Source: Candidatus Omnitrophota bacterium (GTDB taxonomy: Bacteria > Omnitrophota > Koll11 > Tantalellales > Tantalellaceae). Taken from it: DNA of 8,867 bases. Under the pieces are notes generated by a model that did no database searches, was not told the DNA's origin, and saw nothing but the letters and a program-made list of their open reading frames with translations. The translations under genes and the position numbers were made by a program. The stretch covers positions 1 to 8,867 of the forward strand of contig JADGBB010000047.1 of the NCBI GenBank assembly GCA_015231715.1, in the 5' to 3' direction. Shown here piece by piece: positions 1 to 7,501 of this stretch (position 1 is its first letter; every line of letters begins with the position of its first letter).

Positions 1-442
1 TTAAAAATTTATTTCCACACTTACTGTTTCCCTTGCCTTTTTTCTTATTGTTACTTGTTTTTTTTGATTCCACCAACCGACAATACGAAACATAATTCTT
101 CATGCTTTTAAATCTATCCAGCTCTCCGACTACCTTTCCGTGTTCGTTCTTAATAGGTATTTTATGGATCTTAACTATGCGTTCTTTTCCTTCTATCTTG
201 CGCATCAGTTCTGTTTCGAGGCCTTGTCCGGAATTTATAACCTTTTCATCATCAGCTTTATATATGTCTGCCAGGTCTTTTGGATGAAGTTCATGATCGG
301 TCTTTCCTTTAATGTCTTCGGGGCTGATACCCAGGTCATCGGCATAATTTTTATTACAGTATGTATACGCCGACTTTAAATCTTTAGCAAATATCCTTTG
401 CGGAAGGTTTTCCAAAAGATCTTTAAATTTTATTTCATTCAT
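1..442 (-). CDS. PAS-domain protein fused in frame to an IS110-family transposase C-terminal segment (partial, runs off left edge)
   Basis: The frame opens with ATG at 442, 2 nt after the receiver gene's stop, and stays open to the window edge (147 codons visible). Residues 1-105 form a typical PAS sensor domain: NLPQRIFAKD start, an ADDLGISPEDIKGKTD-type core and the closing strand IPIKNEHGKVVG. From about residue 107 the sequence is no longer PAS-like. It reads ELDRFKSMKNYVSYCR, then TSNNKKKGKGN and KCGNKFL, which I recognise as the conserved C-terminal (Transposase_20) region of IS110-type transposases. The Ser in TSNN (residue 130) sits where the family's catalytic Ser is expected. The N-terminal DEDD RuvC-like domain of the transposase is absent. 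No stop or frameshift lies at the join (about nt 118-133). The PAS part probably once belonged to a longer signalling protein serving the adjacent kinase and receiver. The fusion may be a deletion product or an assembly chimera. PAS call strong; transposase call from remembered family motifs. Confidence 0.75.
   Translation of the reverse strand, partial: MNEIKFKDLLENLPQRIFAKDLKSAYTYCNKNYADDLGISPEDIKGKTDHELHPKDLADIYKADDEKVINSGQGLETELMRKIEGKERIVKIHKIPIKNEHGKVVGELDRFKSMKNYVSYCRLVESKKTSNNKKKGKGNSKCGNKFL
118..133 (-). other. junction between PAS-coding and IS110-transposase-like coding sequence
   Basis: Codons for GKVVG (end of the PAS domain) are followed directly by codons for ELDRFKSM. The latter matches the stretch preceding the SYCR motif in IS110-family transposases. 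The reading frame is maintained. The breakpoint cannot be fixed more tightly by eye, because a Gly followed by an acidic residue fits both families at this point. Confidence 0.55.
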
Positions 443-444
443 TT

Positions 445-813
445 TTACCCGACAAGTTGTTTGACTGCCTCTAATAGTTCCGAATTGCTGAACGGTTTTT
501 TTAAAGTATATTTAACATTTGATACATTCTTGACCATTTCAAGACATTGTTTAGAATCAAGCTGGCCGCCGCCCGAAATAGCGATAACCGGCACATCCGG
601 GAAATCCTTGAACAATTCAAAAATAACTTCAGCGCCTTCTTTATTCGGCATTATTATATCCGTAATGACCAGATCCGCAGGCTCAGCCCTGAATATTTTC
701 ATTCCGTCTTCCCCGTCAAAAGCGGTTTCAACACTATAATCTTTTCTTTCCAAAATTTCTTTTAGCACCGTTCTCATGTCTTGGTTATCGTCAATTATTA
801 ATATTCTAGGCAT
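445..813 (-). CDS. single-domain response regulator (CheY-like receiver)
   Basis: A stand-alone phosphoacceptor receiver of 122 residues, the usual length of a lone REC domain, with no DNA-binding or enzymatic output domain. The landmarks are all present: acidic pair D8-D9 (ILIIDD), phosphorylated D52 in VITDIIMPNKEG, S80 in VIAISGGG, and K106 in LKKPF. It lies 24 nt downstream of the histidine kinase gene and is almost certainly its phosphotransfer partner. Output would have to come from another protein; the PAS gene starting 2 nt downstream was a candidate before its apparent disruption. The ATG at 813 is preceded by GGAG at 824-827 with a 10-nt spacer, slightly long but usable. A phosphate-sink role or an adaptor role is equally possible. 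Family assignment is secure; the target is not known. Confidence 0.93.
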   Translation of the reverse strand: MPRILIIDDNQDMRTVLKEILERKDYSVETAFDGEDGMKIFRAEPADLVITDIIMPNKEGAEVIFELFKDFPDVPVIAISGGGQLDSKQCLEMVKNVSNVKYTLKKPFSNSELLEAVKQLVG

Positions 814-837: not shown

Positions 838-2847
838 TTAAACGACTTCTTTAGGAAAATATATACTGATACTTGTACCTTTACCGAGTTCGCTTTCAAC
901 TTTTATCATTCCTCCGTAACTTTCAACAATACCATGAACCATTGAAAGACCTAGCCCTGTGCCTTTCCCAACTTCTTTAGTTGTAAAAAAAGGATCAAAT
1001 ATACGGCTGAGCGTATCTTTATCTATACCATATCCGTTATCTTTTATAATTAGCAGGACATATTCACCACTCTTAAGATCTTTATATTGTTCAGCCAATT
1101 TCTTATCGACAGTAACACGGCTAAGCGAAACTTCTATTTCAACCGAAGACTTTTTTATAGCATGCAGACTATTGTTCAAAAGATTCAAAACTATATGCTG
1201 TATCTGATTGGCATTAGCCATGATATATCCGCAATCAGGATCAATATTTTCACTGATAGCAATGCGGCCTTTTACCGAGGCATTAAAAAGATTTAAAGAT
1301 TCTTTCACAACGGGAGCTATTTCAATTAAACTTAATTTAGCATCTGTAGCTCTACTGAAAGTCATCATTTGGCCGATCAATTCCTGGGCGTTTTCTATCC
1401 CGCTCATAGCTCTAGCTAGATCTGTATATATCCTTGTTTCTTTACCCACATCTTCGCTGGCTAATTCGACACTCCCTCGTATAGCTCCTAAAATATTATT
1501 GAAATTATGCGCTATTCCGCTCGATAAAGTGCCTACAGCTTCCATCTTTTGCGACTGAAAAAGCTGTTTTTGAAAATATTGTTTTTGTTCTTCAGCTTTG
1601 ATCTGATCAGTTATATCTTCAACCATTTCTATCGCCGCAGTTACTTTCCCATTTTCAATAATAGGAGCAGATATTATCCTGTACTTTCTGATCTCATCAC
1701 CGACAGGTGTTTCGGTAGTATCTTGATGTACCTGCCCATCCATAAGTGTTTTACAAGTTGGACAATAAGAACAAATTTCATCTCTTGGCGGATCATTAAA
1801 TGCTTTATAACATATGGGTTTGGATGAATCATCAATAGACGGGAACCATTCTCTCATTTGTTTATTCAAAGATAATATTTTCATATCGGGACTTATTAGA
1901 GCTATCCCTATGCCGATATTGTCAACAATACTGCGGTATTTTTCTTCGCTTTTTGCTAAATTGTATGTTTTTCTTTTGATCTCTATCCGCAAAAATATAA
2001 CTATCAAAACAGCAAGAATAAGGATAAAAGGGATGATAATATAGAAAATATATTTGAGAATATCTTTTATCTTCAAATGTCTGCCCATCAAAGGAACAAA
2101 CCACTTTTCATGCAGTTTCTCAAAAGTTCCGTCAGCCATTACGATAGACAGTCCTTCGTTCAGCTGTGACAGTAATTTTATATCCCCGTCTCTGACAGCA
2201 AATGCAAAGTCCTGCCTAAAATTATTTAATGGTTGATCAAGCGAAACAACGCCTTTAATTTTTTTGTCTTTTAGTATGTAATCGCCCATAAGTTTCTGAG
2301 CAATAACGGCGTCATGTTTACCGGAAGAAAGCAATTTCATCGCCAGAGCATAAGTCGCAACAGGAAAGATCTTAGACGATATGTTCTCACGCAAGACATA
2401 CTCTTCTGCGCTGTCTCCTTTCATAACTATCAATTCTTTGTCCGCTAAGTCAGCGACAGATTTGATCCTAGTATCTCCTTTTCTTACAAAAATGCCTCCG
2501 TGAAGAGGCATGTATGTAAAAGTAAAGTCGTATATAACCTCTCTTTCAGGTGATCTTGCAACTAACGGTAGAACGTCAATTTGACCGTCTTTTAACTCTT
2601 CTTTGATCTTTGCCCATGGTCCGACCTTGAATATAACATCAAAACCTACCACTCTAAGAGATTCTCTTAAAAGTTCAACACTAAAACCATCGGCATCACC
2701 TTTATCATTAACTATACAAAACGGAGGATAATCATATTCCGACCCGGCCCTAACAATACGATGTTCATCGGCAAGCAGATTTGAGGAAAAAGAAAAAAAG
2801 AAAACAAATAAAAAACCAAAGAATATGAGTTTTCTTTTAATTATCAT
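838..2847 (-). CDS. membrane sensor histidine kinase with periplasmic solute-binding (SBP_bac_3) domain, Cys-rich PAS, HisKA and HATPase_c
   Basis: A 669-residue BvgS/EvgS-style sensor without attached receiver domains. Domain order: signal peptide at 1-26 (KRK, then Phe/Leu-rich, cleavage near LLA-DE); family-3 solute-binding domain at about 30-255 (VRAGSEYDYPPFC start, DGFSVELLRE, KWFVPL end); one TM helix at about 264-287; PAS at about 298-415; HisKA with H447 in GIAHNFNN; HATPase_c with N-box N555/N559, G1 box DNGYGID (603-609), F box FDPFFTTK (617-624) and G2 box GKGTGLGL (627-634). The PAS carries four cysteines (C346, C359, C362, C365), the last three as CxxCxxC. The expected path is periplasmic ligand binding, signal across the membrane, autophosphorylation of H447 and transfer to D52 of the receiver encoded 24 nt downstream. 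The ATG at 2847 is the only start after an in-frame upstream TAA. It lacks a Shine-Dalgarno sequence and follows a -10-like TATAAT by 7 nt. The ligand is unknown; family-3 domains often bind polar amino acids or related small molecules. Confidence 0.95.
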   Translation of the reverse strand: MIIKRKLIFFGFLFVFFFSFSSNLLADEHRIVRAGSEYDYPPFCIVNDKGDADGFSVELLRESLRVVGFDVIFKVGPWAKIKEELKDGQIDVLPLVARSPEREVIYDFTFTYMPLHGGIFVRKGDTRIKSVADLADKELIVMKGDSAEEYVLRENISSKIFPVATYALAMKLLSSGKHDAVIAQKLMGDYILKDKKIKGVVSLDQPLNNFRQDFAFAVRDGDIKLLSQLNEGLSIVMADGTFEKLHEKWFVPLMGRHLKIKDILKYIFYIIIPFILILAVLIVIFLRIEIKRKTYNLAKSEEKYRSIVDNIGIGIALISPDMKILSLNKQMREWFPSIDDSSKPICYKAFNDPPRDEICSYCPTCKTLMDGQVHQDTTETPVGDEIRKYRIISAPIIENGKVTAAIEMVEDITDQIKAEEQKQYFQKQLFQSQKMEAVGTLSSGIAHNFNNILGAIRGSVELASEDVGKETRIYTDLARAMSGIENAQELIGQMMTFSRATDAKLSLIEIAPVVKESLNLFNASVKGRIAISENIDPDCGYIMANANQIQHIVLNLLNNSLHAIKKSSVEIEVSLSRVTVDKKLAEQYKDLKSGEYVLLIIKDNGYGIDKDTLSRIFDPFFTTKEVGKGTGLGLSMVHGIVESYGGMIKVESELGKGTSISIYFPKEVV

Positions 2848-2959: not shown

Positions 2960-4639
2960 TCAACCTTTCCCCTGCACCTTCCCCCAAGTATCGCGAAGCG
3001 AAACTGTCTTATTAAACACCAAATTATCCGGATTCGAATCCTTCCTATCCAAACAAAAATACCCGATCCGTTCAAATTGATAATGTTCCCCCAAAACCGC
3101 GTCCTTTAAAGCCGGCTCAAGATACGCATTAACGATTTTCAACGAATCAGGATTTATATTATCTTTATAATCTCCGTTAGACTCGACTTCATTAGGATCC
3201 CGCTTAACAAAAAGATTATCATATTCTCGCACTTCCGCTCTAATCGCGGTATCCGCCGAAACCCAATGTATAGTACCTTTAACTTTACGTCCGTCCGGCG
3301 ATTGTCCGCCTTTAGTACTAGGATCATAACTGCACCTAAGCTCAATAACATTCCCTTTAGCATCCTTAATAACTTCTTCACATTTTATAAAATATGAATA
3401 CCTAAGCCTCACTTCTTTACCCGGAGCAAGTCTGAAAAAATTTTTGGGCGCGTCTTCCATAAAATCAGTTTTTTCTATGAATATATTTTTTGAAAACGGA
3501 ACTTTTCTTGTCCCGCAACTCGCGTCTTCAGGGTTGTTCACAGCATCAAGTTGTTCAGTACCGTCACCGGGATAATTCGTTATAACAACTTTAAGCGGAT
3601 CCATAACTGCCATTACACGATACGCAGTTTTATTCAATTCGTTCCTCAGCGAATTTTCCAAAACAACAAGCTCAATAATACTGTTCGTTTTAGAAATACC
3701 TATCTCTTCGCAAAAGTTACGGATACTCTCGGGCGTATATCCTCTTCTTCGTAAACCCGATATAGTAGGCATGCGCGGGTCATCCCATCCGGCCACAATT
3801 TTACTTTCAACCAATTCCAAAAGTTTTCTTTTACTTAAAACAGTGAACCCCAGATTAAGCCGCGCAAACTCGATCTGCTGAGGATGATGCATTCCGAGCT
3901 CTTCAAGAAACCAGTCATATAAAGGCCTGTTATTTTCAAACTCCAAAGTACATATCGAATGCGTAATCCCTTCAATACTGTCGCTGATACAATGAGCAAA
4001 ATCATACATCGGATAAATACACCATTTATCCCCTGTCCTGTGATGCGATTCTTTTTTTATTCTATACATGGCAGGATCGCGCATAACAATATTGGGATGA
4101 GCCATATCAATTTTAGCCCGCAATACTTTTGACCCTTCTTCAAATTTACCTAAGCGCATACCTTCTAAAAGTTCAAGATTTTCTTTTACGGGCCTGTCTC
4201 TAAAAGGGCTATTTTTACCCGGCTTTGTAAGTGTCCCTCTATATTCCCTGATCTCATCCGCCGTAAGATCACATACATACGCTTTCCCTTTATCAATAAG
4301 CTTTACAGCGCATTCATAAAGTTTATCAAAATAATTCGAAGCAAAATAAAGCCTATCATCCCAGCTAAACCCAAGCCACTTGACATCCTCGATTATAGAA
4401 TTAACATACTCATCTTCTTCCTTAGCGGGATTAGTGTCATCCATCCTAAGATTACAGATCCCTTGATATTCCTTAGCCAGCCCGAAATTAAGACAGATAC
4501 TCTTAGCGTGCCCGATATGCAGATACCCGTTAGGCTCAGGCGGAAACCTCGTATTAATCCTCCCGCCATTCTTCCCGTCCTTAAGATCCCGTTCAATAAT
4601 CTCCTCAATAAAATGCCTAGCCTTATTCTCCATGATCAT
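2960..4639 (-). CDS. glnS: glutaminyl-tRNA synthetase
   Basis: A complete class I aminoacyl-tRNA synthetase of 559 residues, close to the 554 of the E. coli enzyme. It charges tRNA-Gln with glutamine using ATP in the cytoplasm. The Rossmann catalytic domain carries [16 protein letters not shown] (HIGH at 41-44), [10 protein letters not shown] at 65-74, and the KMSKS equivalent VLSKR at 267-271. The motifs [12 protein letters not shown] and [14 protein letters not shown] separate it as GlnRS rather than bacterial GluRS. The C-terminal beta-barrel anticodon-binding region is complete, with [11 protein letters not shown]. The TGA of the upstream ATPase gene ends 1 nt before the ATG at 4639, so expression is probably by read-through and translational coupling. 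A second ATG at codon 3 is an alternative start, better spaced from GTGAG. Having GlnRS implies direct charging rather than sole reliance on the GatCAB route. Confidence 0.97.
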
Positions 4640-5892: not shown

Positions 5893-6480
5893 CTATTCTT
5901 TAGCTCCAATTGTAATATGAAACATAATGTCCAGTTCAACCTTTATTTCCGATTCATTTAGTTCCTCAGGGAAGGACAAAAACGGGCTGGCACGTTTGAC
6001 CGCATCCAGCGATTCCTTGTCCAACTCGTCAAATCCGGATGAAGAAATAAGCCGTAAACCTTCGATCTGTCCGGACGGCAGGACAGAAAAGGTTATCCGC
6101 GCGTTCCCTTGATGCCCTGAACGTAATGCCCAGCGCGGATACTGCTTTTCCTTCTGGATTTTCTGCTTGATGCTGTCTTGATACCGCAGAAGTGATTTTT
6201 TAATCTCTTCATCTTCTTGAGCCGGATTGGGCGCTTCGATTATTGATTCATCCGGTACAGGTTCAATTACATCTTCCTTATCAATAACCAAAGGCTCGAT
6301 TATCTTCTCTTCATTTACTTCAAAAACTTCCGGCAGAATTTCTTCTTCGACTTCAAAAGCGACTTCGAACGGTTTGTCTTTCTGCTCGAAGTTAAAATGC
6401 ATCATGCCCGATCCAAGCAGCCCGGCATGCGCGATAAGCGAAATAATAAGACATGCTTGCAGATCATTTATTTTTTTCAT
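5893..6480 (-). CDS. tonB: TonB-family energy transducer
   Basis: A 195-residue inner-membrane-anchored periplasmic protein that carries energy from ExbB/ExbD to outer-membrane receptors. A single N-terminal helix (about 9-27) contains S14 and H18 in the S-x3-H arrangement of the E. coli TonB anchor (S16, H20), residues important for coupling to ExbB/ExbD. The linker (about 30-105) is strongly acidic with scattered prolines instead of the usual Pro-Lys/Pro-Glu repeats. The C-terminal TonB domain runs from about 112, with YPRWA (114-118), GNARITFSVLPSGQIEG and a last helix before PFLSFPEEL. The gene overlaps exbD by 17 nt and lacks a clear Shine-Dalgarno sequence, so it probably depends on coupled translation. 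As the last gene of the receptor-exbB-exbD cluster, it most likely serves the receptor encoded in the same operon. Confidence 0.9.
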   Translation of the reverse strand: MKKINDLQACLIISLIAHAGLLGSGMMHFNFEQKDKPFEVAFEVEEEILPEVFEVNEEKIIEPLVIDKEDVIEPVPDESIIEAPNPAQEDEEIKKSLLRYQDSIKQKIQKEKQYPRWALRSGHQGNARITFSVLPSGQIEGLRLISSSGFDELDKESLDAVKRASPFLSFPEELNESEIKVELDIMFHITIGAKE

Positions 6481-6889
6481 CGTTTGCCGTTTTAGTAGAT
6501 ATCACAAGGCCGTCCGCGTTTGCCTCTTTGGCTATATCCATCACTTTGACGGCTAATCCTAATAAAACGTCTTCGTCAGCCTTAATGACGACAGTTTTCG
6601 AATCGGCCTTGTTGAGTTCAGACATGAGCAGTCCTTTAAGTTTATCCAAGTCAACTTCGGCTTCATTCATAAAAATATCACCCTCTTTATTAATGGAAAC
6701 CATCACCTGTTCGTTCTTTTGCGTTTGGGCGCTGACCGCTTTGGGCAGTTTCACCTTAAAGCCTTTATTCGACACAAAATGCGATGACAGCACAAAGAAT
6801 ATCAGAAGCAAAAAAACAATATCGATCAGGGGAGCGATATTTAAAGTCGTATCCGATTTTTTCCTTCTTTCAAGCTCAAATGAACCCAA
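6464..6889 (-). CDS. exbD: biopolymer transport protein ExbD (TTG start)
   Basis: A 141-residue ExbD/TolR family protein, the usual size. A short basic cytoplasmic N-terminus (ERRKKSD) precedes the single TM helix (about 19-36), which contains the conserved proton-carrying aspartate D23 in LNIAPLIDIVFLLLIFF. E. coli ExbD has D25 at the equivalent place. The remainder (about 40-138) is the small periplasmic domain. It forms the proton-driven motor with ExbB and acts on TonB. No ATG precedes the TM helix, and the in-frame codon two before the chosen start is a stop (TGA). The start must therefore be the TTG at 6889, which has GGAG 6 nt upstream. The gene lies 15 nt after exbB and overlaps tonB by 17 nt. 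Confidence 0.94.
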   Translation of the reverse strand: MGSFELERRKKSDTTLNIAPLIDIVFLLLIFFVLSSHFVSNKGFKVKLPKAVSAQTQKNEQVMVSINKEGDIFMNEAEVDLDKLKGLLMSELNKADSKTVVIKADEDVLLGLAVKVMDIAKEANADGLVISTKTANDEKNK

Positions 6890-6895
6890 ACTTCA

Positions 6896-6899
6896 CTCC
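6896..6899 (-). promoter_or_regulatory. Shine-Dalgarno GGAG fixing the TTG start of exbD
   Basis: GGAG on the minus strand with a 6-nt spacer to the TTG at 6889. A nearby GTG in another frame reaches a stop within a few codons, so this site supports TTG initiation. Confidence 0.7.
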
Positions 6900-6904
6900 G
6901 GCTG

Positions 6905-7501
6905 TTAATGCAAATTAAAAATATCCGCGGCCAAATTTTTGTACTGTACCGCGCGGCTGTCAACAATGCCTTCAAAATAATGATATATAACCAGAGTCGG
7001 GATCGCCACGCTTAACCCTGCCGCTGTAGTAAGAAGCGCCTCCCAGATTCCGCCGGCAAGCAACGAAACATCCGCGGTTCCTCCGGAAGCTTCGATCTTA
7101 ATAAAGGTCTGGATCATGCCGGTTACCGTCCCCAATAGTCCCAACAAGGTTGCTATATTGCCGATCACAGAAAGAATCCGAAGATGTTTTTCGCCCTCTT
7201 CAAGCTCCCGCGACCCGGCCCGGCGCAGTATTTTGCCTTTTTCATCAGATGGTCTATCCATCACTTTGATCCCGACTGCCAGAAAACGGCCGATAAAACT
7301 TGCGTCTTGCTCGCAAAGCTTATATGCTTCATCGGGCTTCTCGGCATTGATTAAGATTTGCGCCCGTTCCGGCAAATTCTTATTACCTGAGCGCGTGCGG
7401 CGGAAATACCTTAACCTCTCTAAACCAACAGCTAACGAGACAACCGAACACAAAAAAATCGGCCAAATAAAAAATCCGCCTTTAACAATAAAATTCATCA
7501 T
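6905..7501 (-). CDS. exbB: biopolymer transport protein ExbB (MotA/TolQ/ExbB family)
   Basis: A 198-residue proton-channel subunit of the TonB motor in the inner membrane. Three TM helices are visible: about 8-28, about 108-132 and about 154-176, with the large cytoplasmic loop between the first two. The signature GLLGTVTGMI ends at 130, and GGIWEALLTTAAGLSVAIP spans 150-168; its Glu (E154) corresponds by motif to the conserved Glu of TM3 in E. coli ExbB (E176). It pairs with the ExbD encoded 15 nt downstream. The start is one of two consecutive ATGs at 7501/7498, preceded by AAGAGAGG that overlaps the stop of the receptor gene, so the two are translated together. TolQ is the main alternative, but the neighbouring TonB receptor and transducer favour ExbB. 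Confidence 0.93.
   Translation of the reverse strand: MMNFIVKGGFFIWPIFLCSVVSLAVGLERLRYFRRTRSGNKNLPERAQILINAEKPDEAYKLCEQDASFIGRFLAVGIKVMDRPSDEKGKILRRAGSRELEEGEKHLRILSVIGNIATLLGLLGTVTGMIQTFIKIEASGGTADVSLLAGGIWEALLTTAAGLSVAIPTLVIYHYFEGIVDSRAVQYKNLAADIFNLH

What the first reader, a model, noticed from the sequence alone, without database searches (positions are those of the whole stretch)
1..442. In-frame PAS domain / IS110-family transposase C-terminus chimera
The open frame after the receiver gene gives a normal PAS domain for about 105 residues, then continues without stop or frameshift into DRFKSMKNYVSYCR...TSNNKKKGKGN...GNKFL, the hallmark C-terminal region of IS110-type transposases. The DEDD catalytic half is missing, so this is not a simple insertion of a whole element. 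Possible explanations are a deletion joining a sensor gene to a nearby IS110 copy, capture of the Ser-bearing transposase domain by a sensory domain, or a chimeric contig. A ligand-sensing domain on an IS110 recombinase fragment would be new to me.
Basis: partly seen in the sequence, partly recalled or inferred. Interest (0 to 1): 0.72.

Follow-up and report, generated by a model that had tools for sequence, protein, structure and literature searches.

The report
Contig-end splice of two ordinary genes
The odd gene at the edge of this contig is most likely two ordinary genes, a bacterial sensor and a piece of a common mobile-element recombinase, spliced together by an assembly or deletion break rather than a new kind of sensor-controlled recombinase.

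Summary
In detail: complement(2..442) is one open frame whose residues 10-106 match PAS and whose residues 105-146 match the IS110 Tnp domain. The novel reading does not. The frame runs off the contig end. Both domains are cut inside: PAS stops before its last strand, where 30 of 32 matched relatives carry a D-[IVLM]-[ST] ending, and the Tnp match begins at profile position 22 of 87. The tail is identical, 42 of 42 residues, to residues 235-276 of P0045, an intact 339-aa IS110 recombinase on a 25,313-nt contig; the next best of the 211 other proteins held has 34. Identity begins at codon 106, window nt 127, so the tail is about 127 nt, the contig-end overlap expected of metaSPAdes at k=127. 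No second protein with this join was found among 17 candidates. Best explanation: the contig ends one k-mer inside an IS110 repeat, entered through a chance join with a sensor gene. Whether that join is in the chromosome (a deletion scar) or only in chimeric molecules cannot be told without reads. Either way it is debris, lacking the RuvC half of the composite active site. Interest is low.

The parts
128..442 (-). Start and most of a PAS domain (residues 1-105), first part of a sensor protein whose remainder is missing
   Evidence: PAS_4 8.7e-17, profile 1-97 of 110; TIGR00229 PAS S-box 35.1 bits; 50-52% identical to PAS domains in long proteins of the phylum of G001; 30 of 32 matched relatives go on with D-[IVLM]-[ST] where the window does not
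1..127 (-). Fragment of an IS110-type recombinase (42 residues of the Tnp domain, with the conserved Ser at residue 130, nt 53-55), cut by the contig end
   Evidence: Transposase_20 23.2 bits on the tail alone; 42 of 42 residues identical to P0045 residues 235-276; Ser placed by the alignment to IS621
125..133 (-). The join (within codons 104-106, V-V-G)
   Evidence: Identity to P0045 starts at codon 106 = nt 127; if the donor copy had V before G, as several relatives do, it could reach nt 131
445..813 (-). Response-regulator receiver protein upstream of the PAS gene, intact
   Evidence: Response_reg 7e-23, profile 1-111 of 111
838..2847 (-). Sensor histidine kinase with periplasmic solute-binding domain, upstream in the same direction
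   Evidence: SBP_bac_3, HisKA, HATPase_c

Best explanation
The frame is two unrelated genes spliced at a break point, seen because the contig ends inside a repeat. The 5' part is the start of an ordinary PAS sensor gene that follows a histidine kinase and a receiver gene in a bacterium that is probably of the Omnitrophota. The 3' part is a stretch from the middle of an IS110 recombinase gene of which an intact copy exists. The assembler walked from the sensor gene into the IS110 sequence through a join supplied either by a real deletion/rearrangement or by chimeric molecules, and stopped one k-mer (about 127 nt) later, where the path merges with the intact copy. The fused frame is open by chance (one in three joins keeps frame). 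No function is expected: the PAS lacks its last strand, and the Tnp piece lacks the RuvC-like DEDD half that supplies the rest of the active site. Shown: domain matches, internal cuts, identity with P0045 at protein level, place of codon 106. Inferred: that P0045 comes from the same assembly, that k was 127, the origin of the join, the host.
For: Frame runs off the contig end. Both domains are cut inside: PAS_4 to 97/110, Transposase_20 from 22/87, against 2-87/87 in P0045. 37 loci compared, 32 with a match, 30 of the 32 continue with D-[IVLM]-[ST] after the join point. Tail 42/42 identical to intact P0045; next best of the 211 other proteins held 34/42. P0045 and P0001 are the only proteins in the lists with the source field '-', which hints at one withheld source. 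Codon 106 starts at nt 127. COBRA (PMC10914622, passages read): in simulations, contigs broken at repeats carry end sequences of maxK length with metaSPAdes and MEGAHIT, and metaSPAdes is run to k=127. No second protein with the join among 17 candidates. IS110 active site is composite RuvC + Tnp Ser, and mutating D11, E60, D102, D105 or S241 abolished IS621 recombination (PMC11208158, passages).
Against: No reads or coverage could be seen, and the DNA of P0045's contig could not be fetched, so nucleotide identity and the exact 127 nt are not shown (128 if the donor Ser codon ends in C; up to 131 if another copy with V-G is the donor). The assembler is not known; that P0045 comes from the same assembly is inferred only from an empty source field. 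P0045 sits unbroken in a 25-kb contig, which needs an assembler that resolves repeats, or another assembly. The contig passes the join without breaking, so the fused path was the one kept, which favours a join present in most reads. The host is guessed from GlnRS alone, and the histidine kinase had no match at E 1e-60 in 42 genomes of the order of G166.
Confidence: 0.87

Rival explanations
1. Within the splice reading: the join is real in the chromosome. An IS110 copy downstream of the sensor gene, same direction, was joined to it by a deletion that removed the 3' part of the sensor gene and the 5' part of the element; a pseudogene scar is left, which would end at the IS110 stop after about 210 aa if the rest matches P0045.
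For: The contig passes the join without a break, so the assembler kept this path; same-strand orientation fits a simple deletion; IS110 relatives occur in the phylum of G001 (18 of 270 genomes at E 1e-8) and some copies there are already broken.
Against: No read support seen; the join is inside the element, not at its ends, so the recombinase itself did not make it in its usual way; no other instance of the join, though no close relative is held in which to look.
Confidence: 0.45
2. Within the splice reading: the join is not in any cell. It is a chimeric molecule or a false path of the assembler, and the true gene goes on into a normal PAS ending.
For: Join close to a contig end at a sequence that exists intact elsewhere; tail length equal to a common maxK; the protein cluster of this join has one member on one contig.
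Against: A false path that outcompetes the true one is unusual at fair coverage (my judgement); the natural continuation was not found.
Confidence: 0.42
3. A true fused gene: a PAS domain regulates or positions an IS110 Tnp domain.
For: One open frame without stop; conserved Ser kept.
Against: Both domains cut inside their folds; no match to the RuvC domain; the tail has not diverged from the intact copy at all (42/42), so the fusion shows no history of its own; no homologous fusion found.
Confidence: 0.02

Closest known systems
IS110 family recombinase (PF01548 + PF02371; P0045; IS621)
   Same: The 42-residue tail is identical to P0045, which scores as an IS110 family RNA-guided transposase above cut-off (NF033542), and carries the conserved Ser of the Tnp domain
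   Different: No match to the RuvC-like DEDD domain, Tnp domain only from profile position 22, no end; sits behind a foreign N-terminus
PAS sensor proteins of the phylum of G001 (e.g. L120, 593 aa; L121, 402 aa)
   Same: 50-52% identity over residues 2-111
   Different: The relatives finish the PAS with a last strand and D-I-T-E-R-K and go on into further PAS or kinase parts
Contig-end overlaps of de Bruijn assemblers at repeats (COBRA paper, PMC10914622, passages)
   Same: End block of maxK length identical to another copy (identity at protein level only)
   Different: Normally the flank enters a repeat at its natural end; here it enters in the middle of a gene

Membership tests
IS110 family recombinase | N-terminal RuvC-like DEDD domain (PF01548) | tested here: not met
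   No PF01548 match in P0001 at E up to 1; P0045 has it. The frame's whole N-terminal side is on the contig and is PAS, so it is absent, not unseen
IS110 family recombinase | Tnp domain (PF02371) with conserved Ser | tested here: inconclusive
   Profile 22-63 of 87 only, 23.2 bits on the tail alone; Ser present; the rest lies beyond the contig end
IS110 family recombinase | Score above NCBI's cut-off for the whole protein | tested here: not met
   NF033542 15.8 bits against 140; P0045 scores 159.6
IS110 family recombinase | Element ends and bridge RNA | not testable with these tools
   Sequence beyond the contig end is not held
PAS domain protein | Complete PAS fold including last strand | tested here: not met
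   PAS_4 to 97/110; window has VGELDRFK where 30 of 32 matched relatives have a stretch ending in D-[IVLM]-[ST]
PAS domain protein | Sequence match above family cut-off | tested here: met
   PAS_4 61.8 bits against cut-off 23.1
Assembly end overlap at a repeat | End block identical to another copy | tested here: met
   42/42 residues at protein level; DNA not available
Assembly end overlap at a repeat | Block length equals an assembler maxK | tested here: inconclusive
   127 nt if P0045 is the donor, possible range 127-131; assembler not known
Assembly end overlap at a repeat | Read and coverage pattern at the join | not testable with these tools
   No reads held

The most novel reading that the evidence does not exclude
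A real, expressed protein of about 210 aa in which a PAS domain is joined to the Ser-bearing half of an IS110 Tnp domain and acts, for example, as a ligand-dependent inhibitor of the intact IS110 recombinase by entering its tetramer.
Probability: 0.02. Interest if true: 0.7.

Novelty: not a real feature. Interest (0 to 1): 0.08.

Why it matters
If the fusion were real and functional it would be the first sensor-linked IS110 recombinase part known to me. As it stands the use is practical: an in-frame 'domain fusion' whose second part lies within one k-mer of a contig end and is identical to an intact copy elsewhere should be treated as a break point, not as a new protein.

Tried and rejected
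Own-genome search: none is held. Relatives of P0001 by back-translated patterns in viral and genome contigs: none confirmed. The tail in plasmids at E 1e-5: none. P0002 in phages: one record, 54% identity, E 6e-9. P0002 and P0045 in viral contigs: none; a 23-nt pattern from the IS110 tail in viral contigs: none. A close sister genome by GlnRS: best 70-72%, so no close relative from which to read the natural continuation or the IS110 DNA (best 80 kept of a capped scan, 384 genomes drawn from a larger group). The histidine kinase in 42 genomes of the order of G166 at E 1e-60: none. P0045 in 197 genomes of the class of G195 at E 1e-60: only G088, 61% over residues 126-339. A structure prediction was not run: it would not tell a splice from a gene. 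Metagenome contigs were not scanned (cap of zero).

Considered and rejected: chance match of the tail (42/42 identity); insertion of a whole IS110 into the sensor gene (the join is at codon 235 of the recombinase gene, not at an element end); foreign contamination (thought unlikely, not excluded: IS110s of this branch occur in Omnitrophota, since P0019 is so named and G088 and G075 carry relatives).

Papers: listings; passages of PMC11208158, PMC11208160 and PMC10914622. That no such fusion was met in print rests only on the listing (six papers holding three of four terms, judged by title and start of abstract).

Full report
What is there. The window's left edge holds an open frame on the minus strand, complement(2..442), 147 codons from an ATG, with no stop before the contig ends. 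Pfam gives PAS_4 on residues 10-106 (E 8.7e-17) and Transposase_20, the Tnp domain of IS110 recombinases, on residues 105-146 (E 9.4e-4 in the whole protein, just under the cut-off; 9.3e-5 and 23.2 bits, above the 21.3 cut-off, for the tail alone). NCBIfam agrees on both places, the IS110 model weakly.

Where it lies. Upstream on the same strand are a receiver protein, a histidine kinase with a periplasmic solute-binding domain, a glutamine--tRNA ligase, an AAA/DUF4143 protein, TonB, ExbD, ExbB and a TonB-dependent receptor that is cut by the other end. The tRNA ligase is closest to a MAG named Candidatus Omnitrophota, 70%, among the best 80 of a capped scan, and reaches 72% in the phylum of that genome. 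A PAS-bearing locus of that phylum, L120, also has ExbB-ExbD-TonB nearby. I take the host to be Omnitrophota-like; this rests on the one ligase, since the PAS was searched only in that phylum and in five single genomes. No genome of the window itself is held.

The PAS side. A search of 285 genomes of the phylum of G001 gave matches to P0001 in 151 at E 1e-4 (a few are to the IS110 side); the best two are 50-51% identical, in frames of 407 and 599 codons. I gave 37 loci to a direct comparison (L081-L087, L088-L117); 32 had a match to residues 1-104. In 30 of the 32 the protein goes on past the join point with a D-[IVLM]-[ST] motif, mostly D-I-T: 28 of 29 from the phylum of G001 and 2 of 3 from G002 and G004, whose titles do not name Omnitrophota. 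The other two have D-I-A and D-I-E at that place. The window has V-G-E-L-D-R-F-K instead. The PAS is thus cut within its last strand, in agreement with the Pfam match that ends at position 97 of 110.

The IS110 side. Searching the large protein collection with an alignment of IS110 relatives brought up P0045, a 339-aa protein with both IS110 domains (PF01548, and PF02371 over 2-87 of 87) on a 25,313-nt contig; NCBIfam places it above cut-off as an IS110 family RNA-guided transposase. Its residues 235-276 are identical to window residues 106-147, 42 of 42; the next best of the 211 other proteins held has 34 of 42. A second search with residues 70-276 of P0045 listed 120 proteins of 4309, and the nearest after P0045 itself is 81% identical. 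P0045 and the window's own P0001 are the only proteins in these lists whose source field is '-', which I take as a hint, no more, that they share a withheld source. The alignment to IS621 sets P0045 Ser259, window residue 130, on a Ser that is followed by Gly in IS621. With the two extra residues of the deposited chain (328 against the 326 of the paper; my inference) this is S241, the nucleophile, next to the conserved G242 (PMC11208158, passages).

The length of the tail. Codon 106 begins at window nt 127. If P0045's gene is the donor, the identical block is 127 nt long, or 128 if its Ser codon ends in C; if the donor is another copy with Val before the Gly, as in several relatives, up to 131. 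This supposes identity at the DNA level, which I could not see. The COBRA paper reports from simulations that contigs broken at repeats carry end sequences of length maxK in metaSPAdes and MEGAHIT, and names metaSPAdes runs up to k=127 (PMC10914622, passages). The contig end is therefore what one expects when a unique stretch runs into a repeat: the contig stops one k-mer inside it. A tail length near one of the few common maxK values would arise by chance in only a few percent of cases (my own rough estimate, not computed).

What made the join. The join is at codon 235 of the recombinase, not at an element end, so it is not a plain IS110 insertion. Two options remain. One is a deletion in the chromosome that removed the 3' part of the sensor gene and the 5' part of a nearby, same-direction IS110. 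The other is a chimeric molecule or false path. The contig passes the join without breaking, which slightly favours a join present in most reads. The lack of any second instance (17 candidates, one match besides itself, a 133-aa IS110 fragment) says little between the two, because no close relative of this organism is held. That P0045 lies unbroken in a 25-kb contig needs an assembler that resolves repeats, or a separate assembly. Reads would decide.

Why it is not a new protein. Domain fusions that work are usually joined between folds; here both folds are cut inside. The Tnp piece lacks the RuvC-like half, and IS110 catalysis needs both halves in one composite site: in IS621, mutating D11, E60, D102, D105 or S241 abolished recombination. 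The tail has not changed by a single residue from the intact copy, so there is no sign that it has a history of its own. An open frame across a random join is a one-in-three event.

Verdict. If the join is real in the chromosome it is a pseudogene scar, still ordinary.

Noticed in passing
L113 546-1659 (G088:C22): An IS110 copy in the phylum of G001 whose reading frame is split into two overlapping frames, as if frameshifted; decayed copies of this IS110 branch exist there.
   Followed up: no
L124 / L119 (G242:C216): An IS110 relative with two TAA codons inside the matched stretch, at the end of a contig of 3,260 nt; another broken copy at a contig end.
   Followed up: no
L120 7131-8820 and window 5893-7501: ExbB-ExbD-TonB cluster near PAS-rich signalling genes in both the window and genome G166 (in L120 judged from the translations).
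   Followed up: partly
window 838-2847: Histidine kinase with an SBP_bac_3 periplasmic sensor, followed by a single receiver protein and the PAS gene: an ordinary-looking two-component cluster cut by the contig end.
   Followed up: partly
window 2960-4639: Glutamine--tRNA ligase scores best with NCBI's model of a ligase/YqeY fusion (NF011291, positions 11-559 of 769) but ends before the YqeY part.
   Followed up: no
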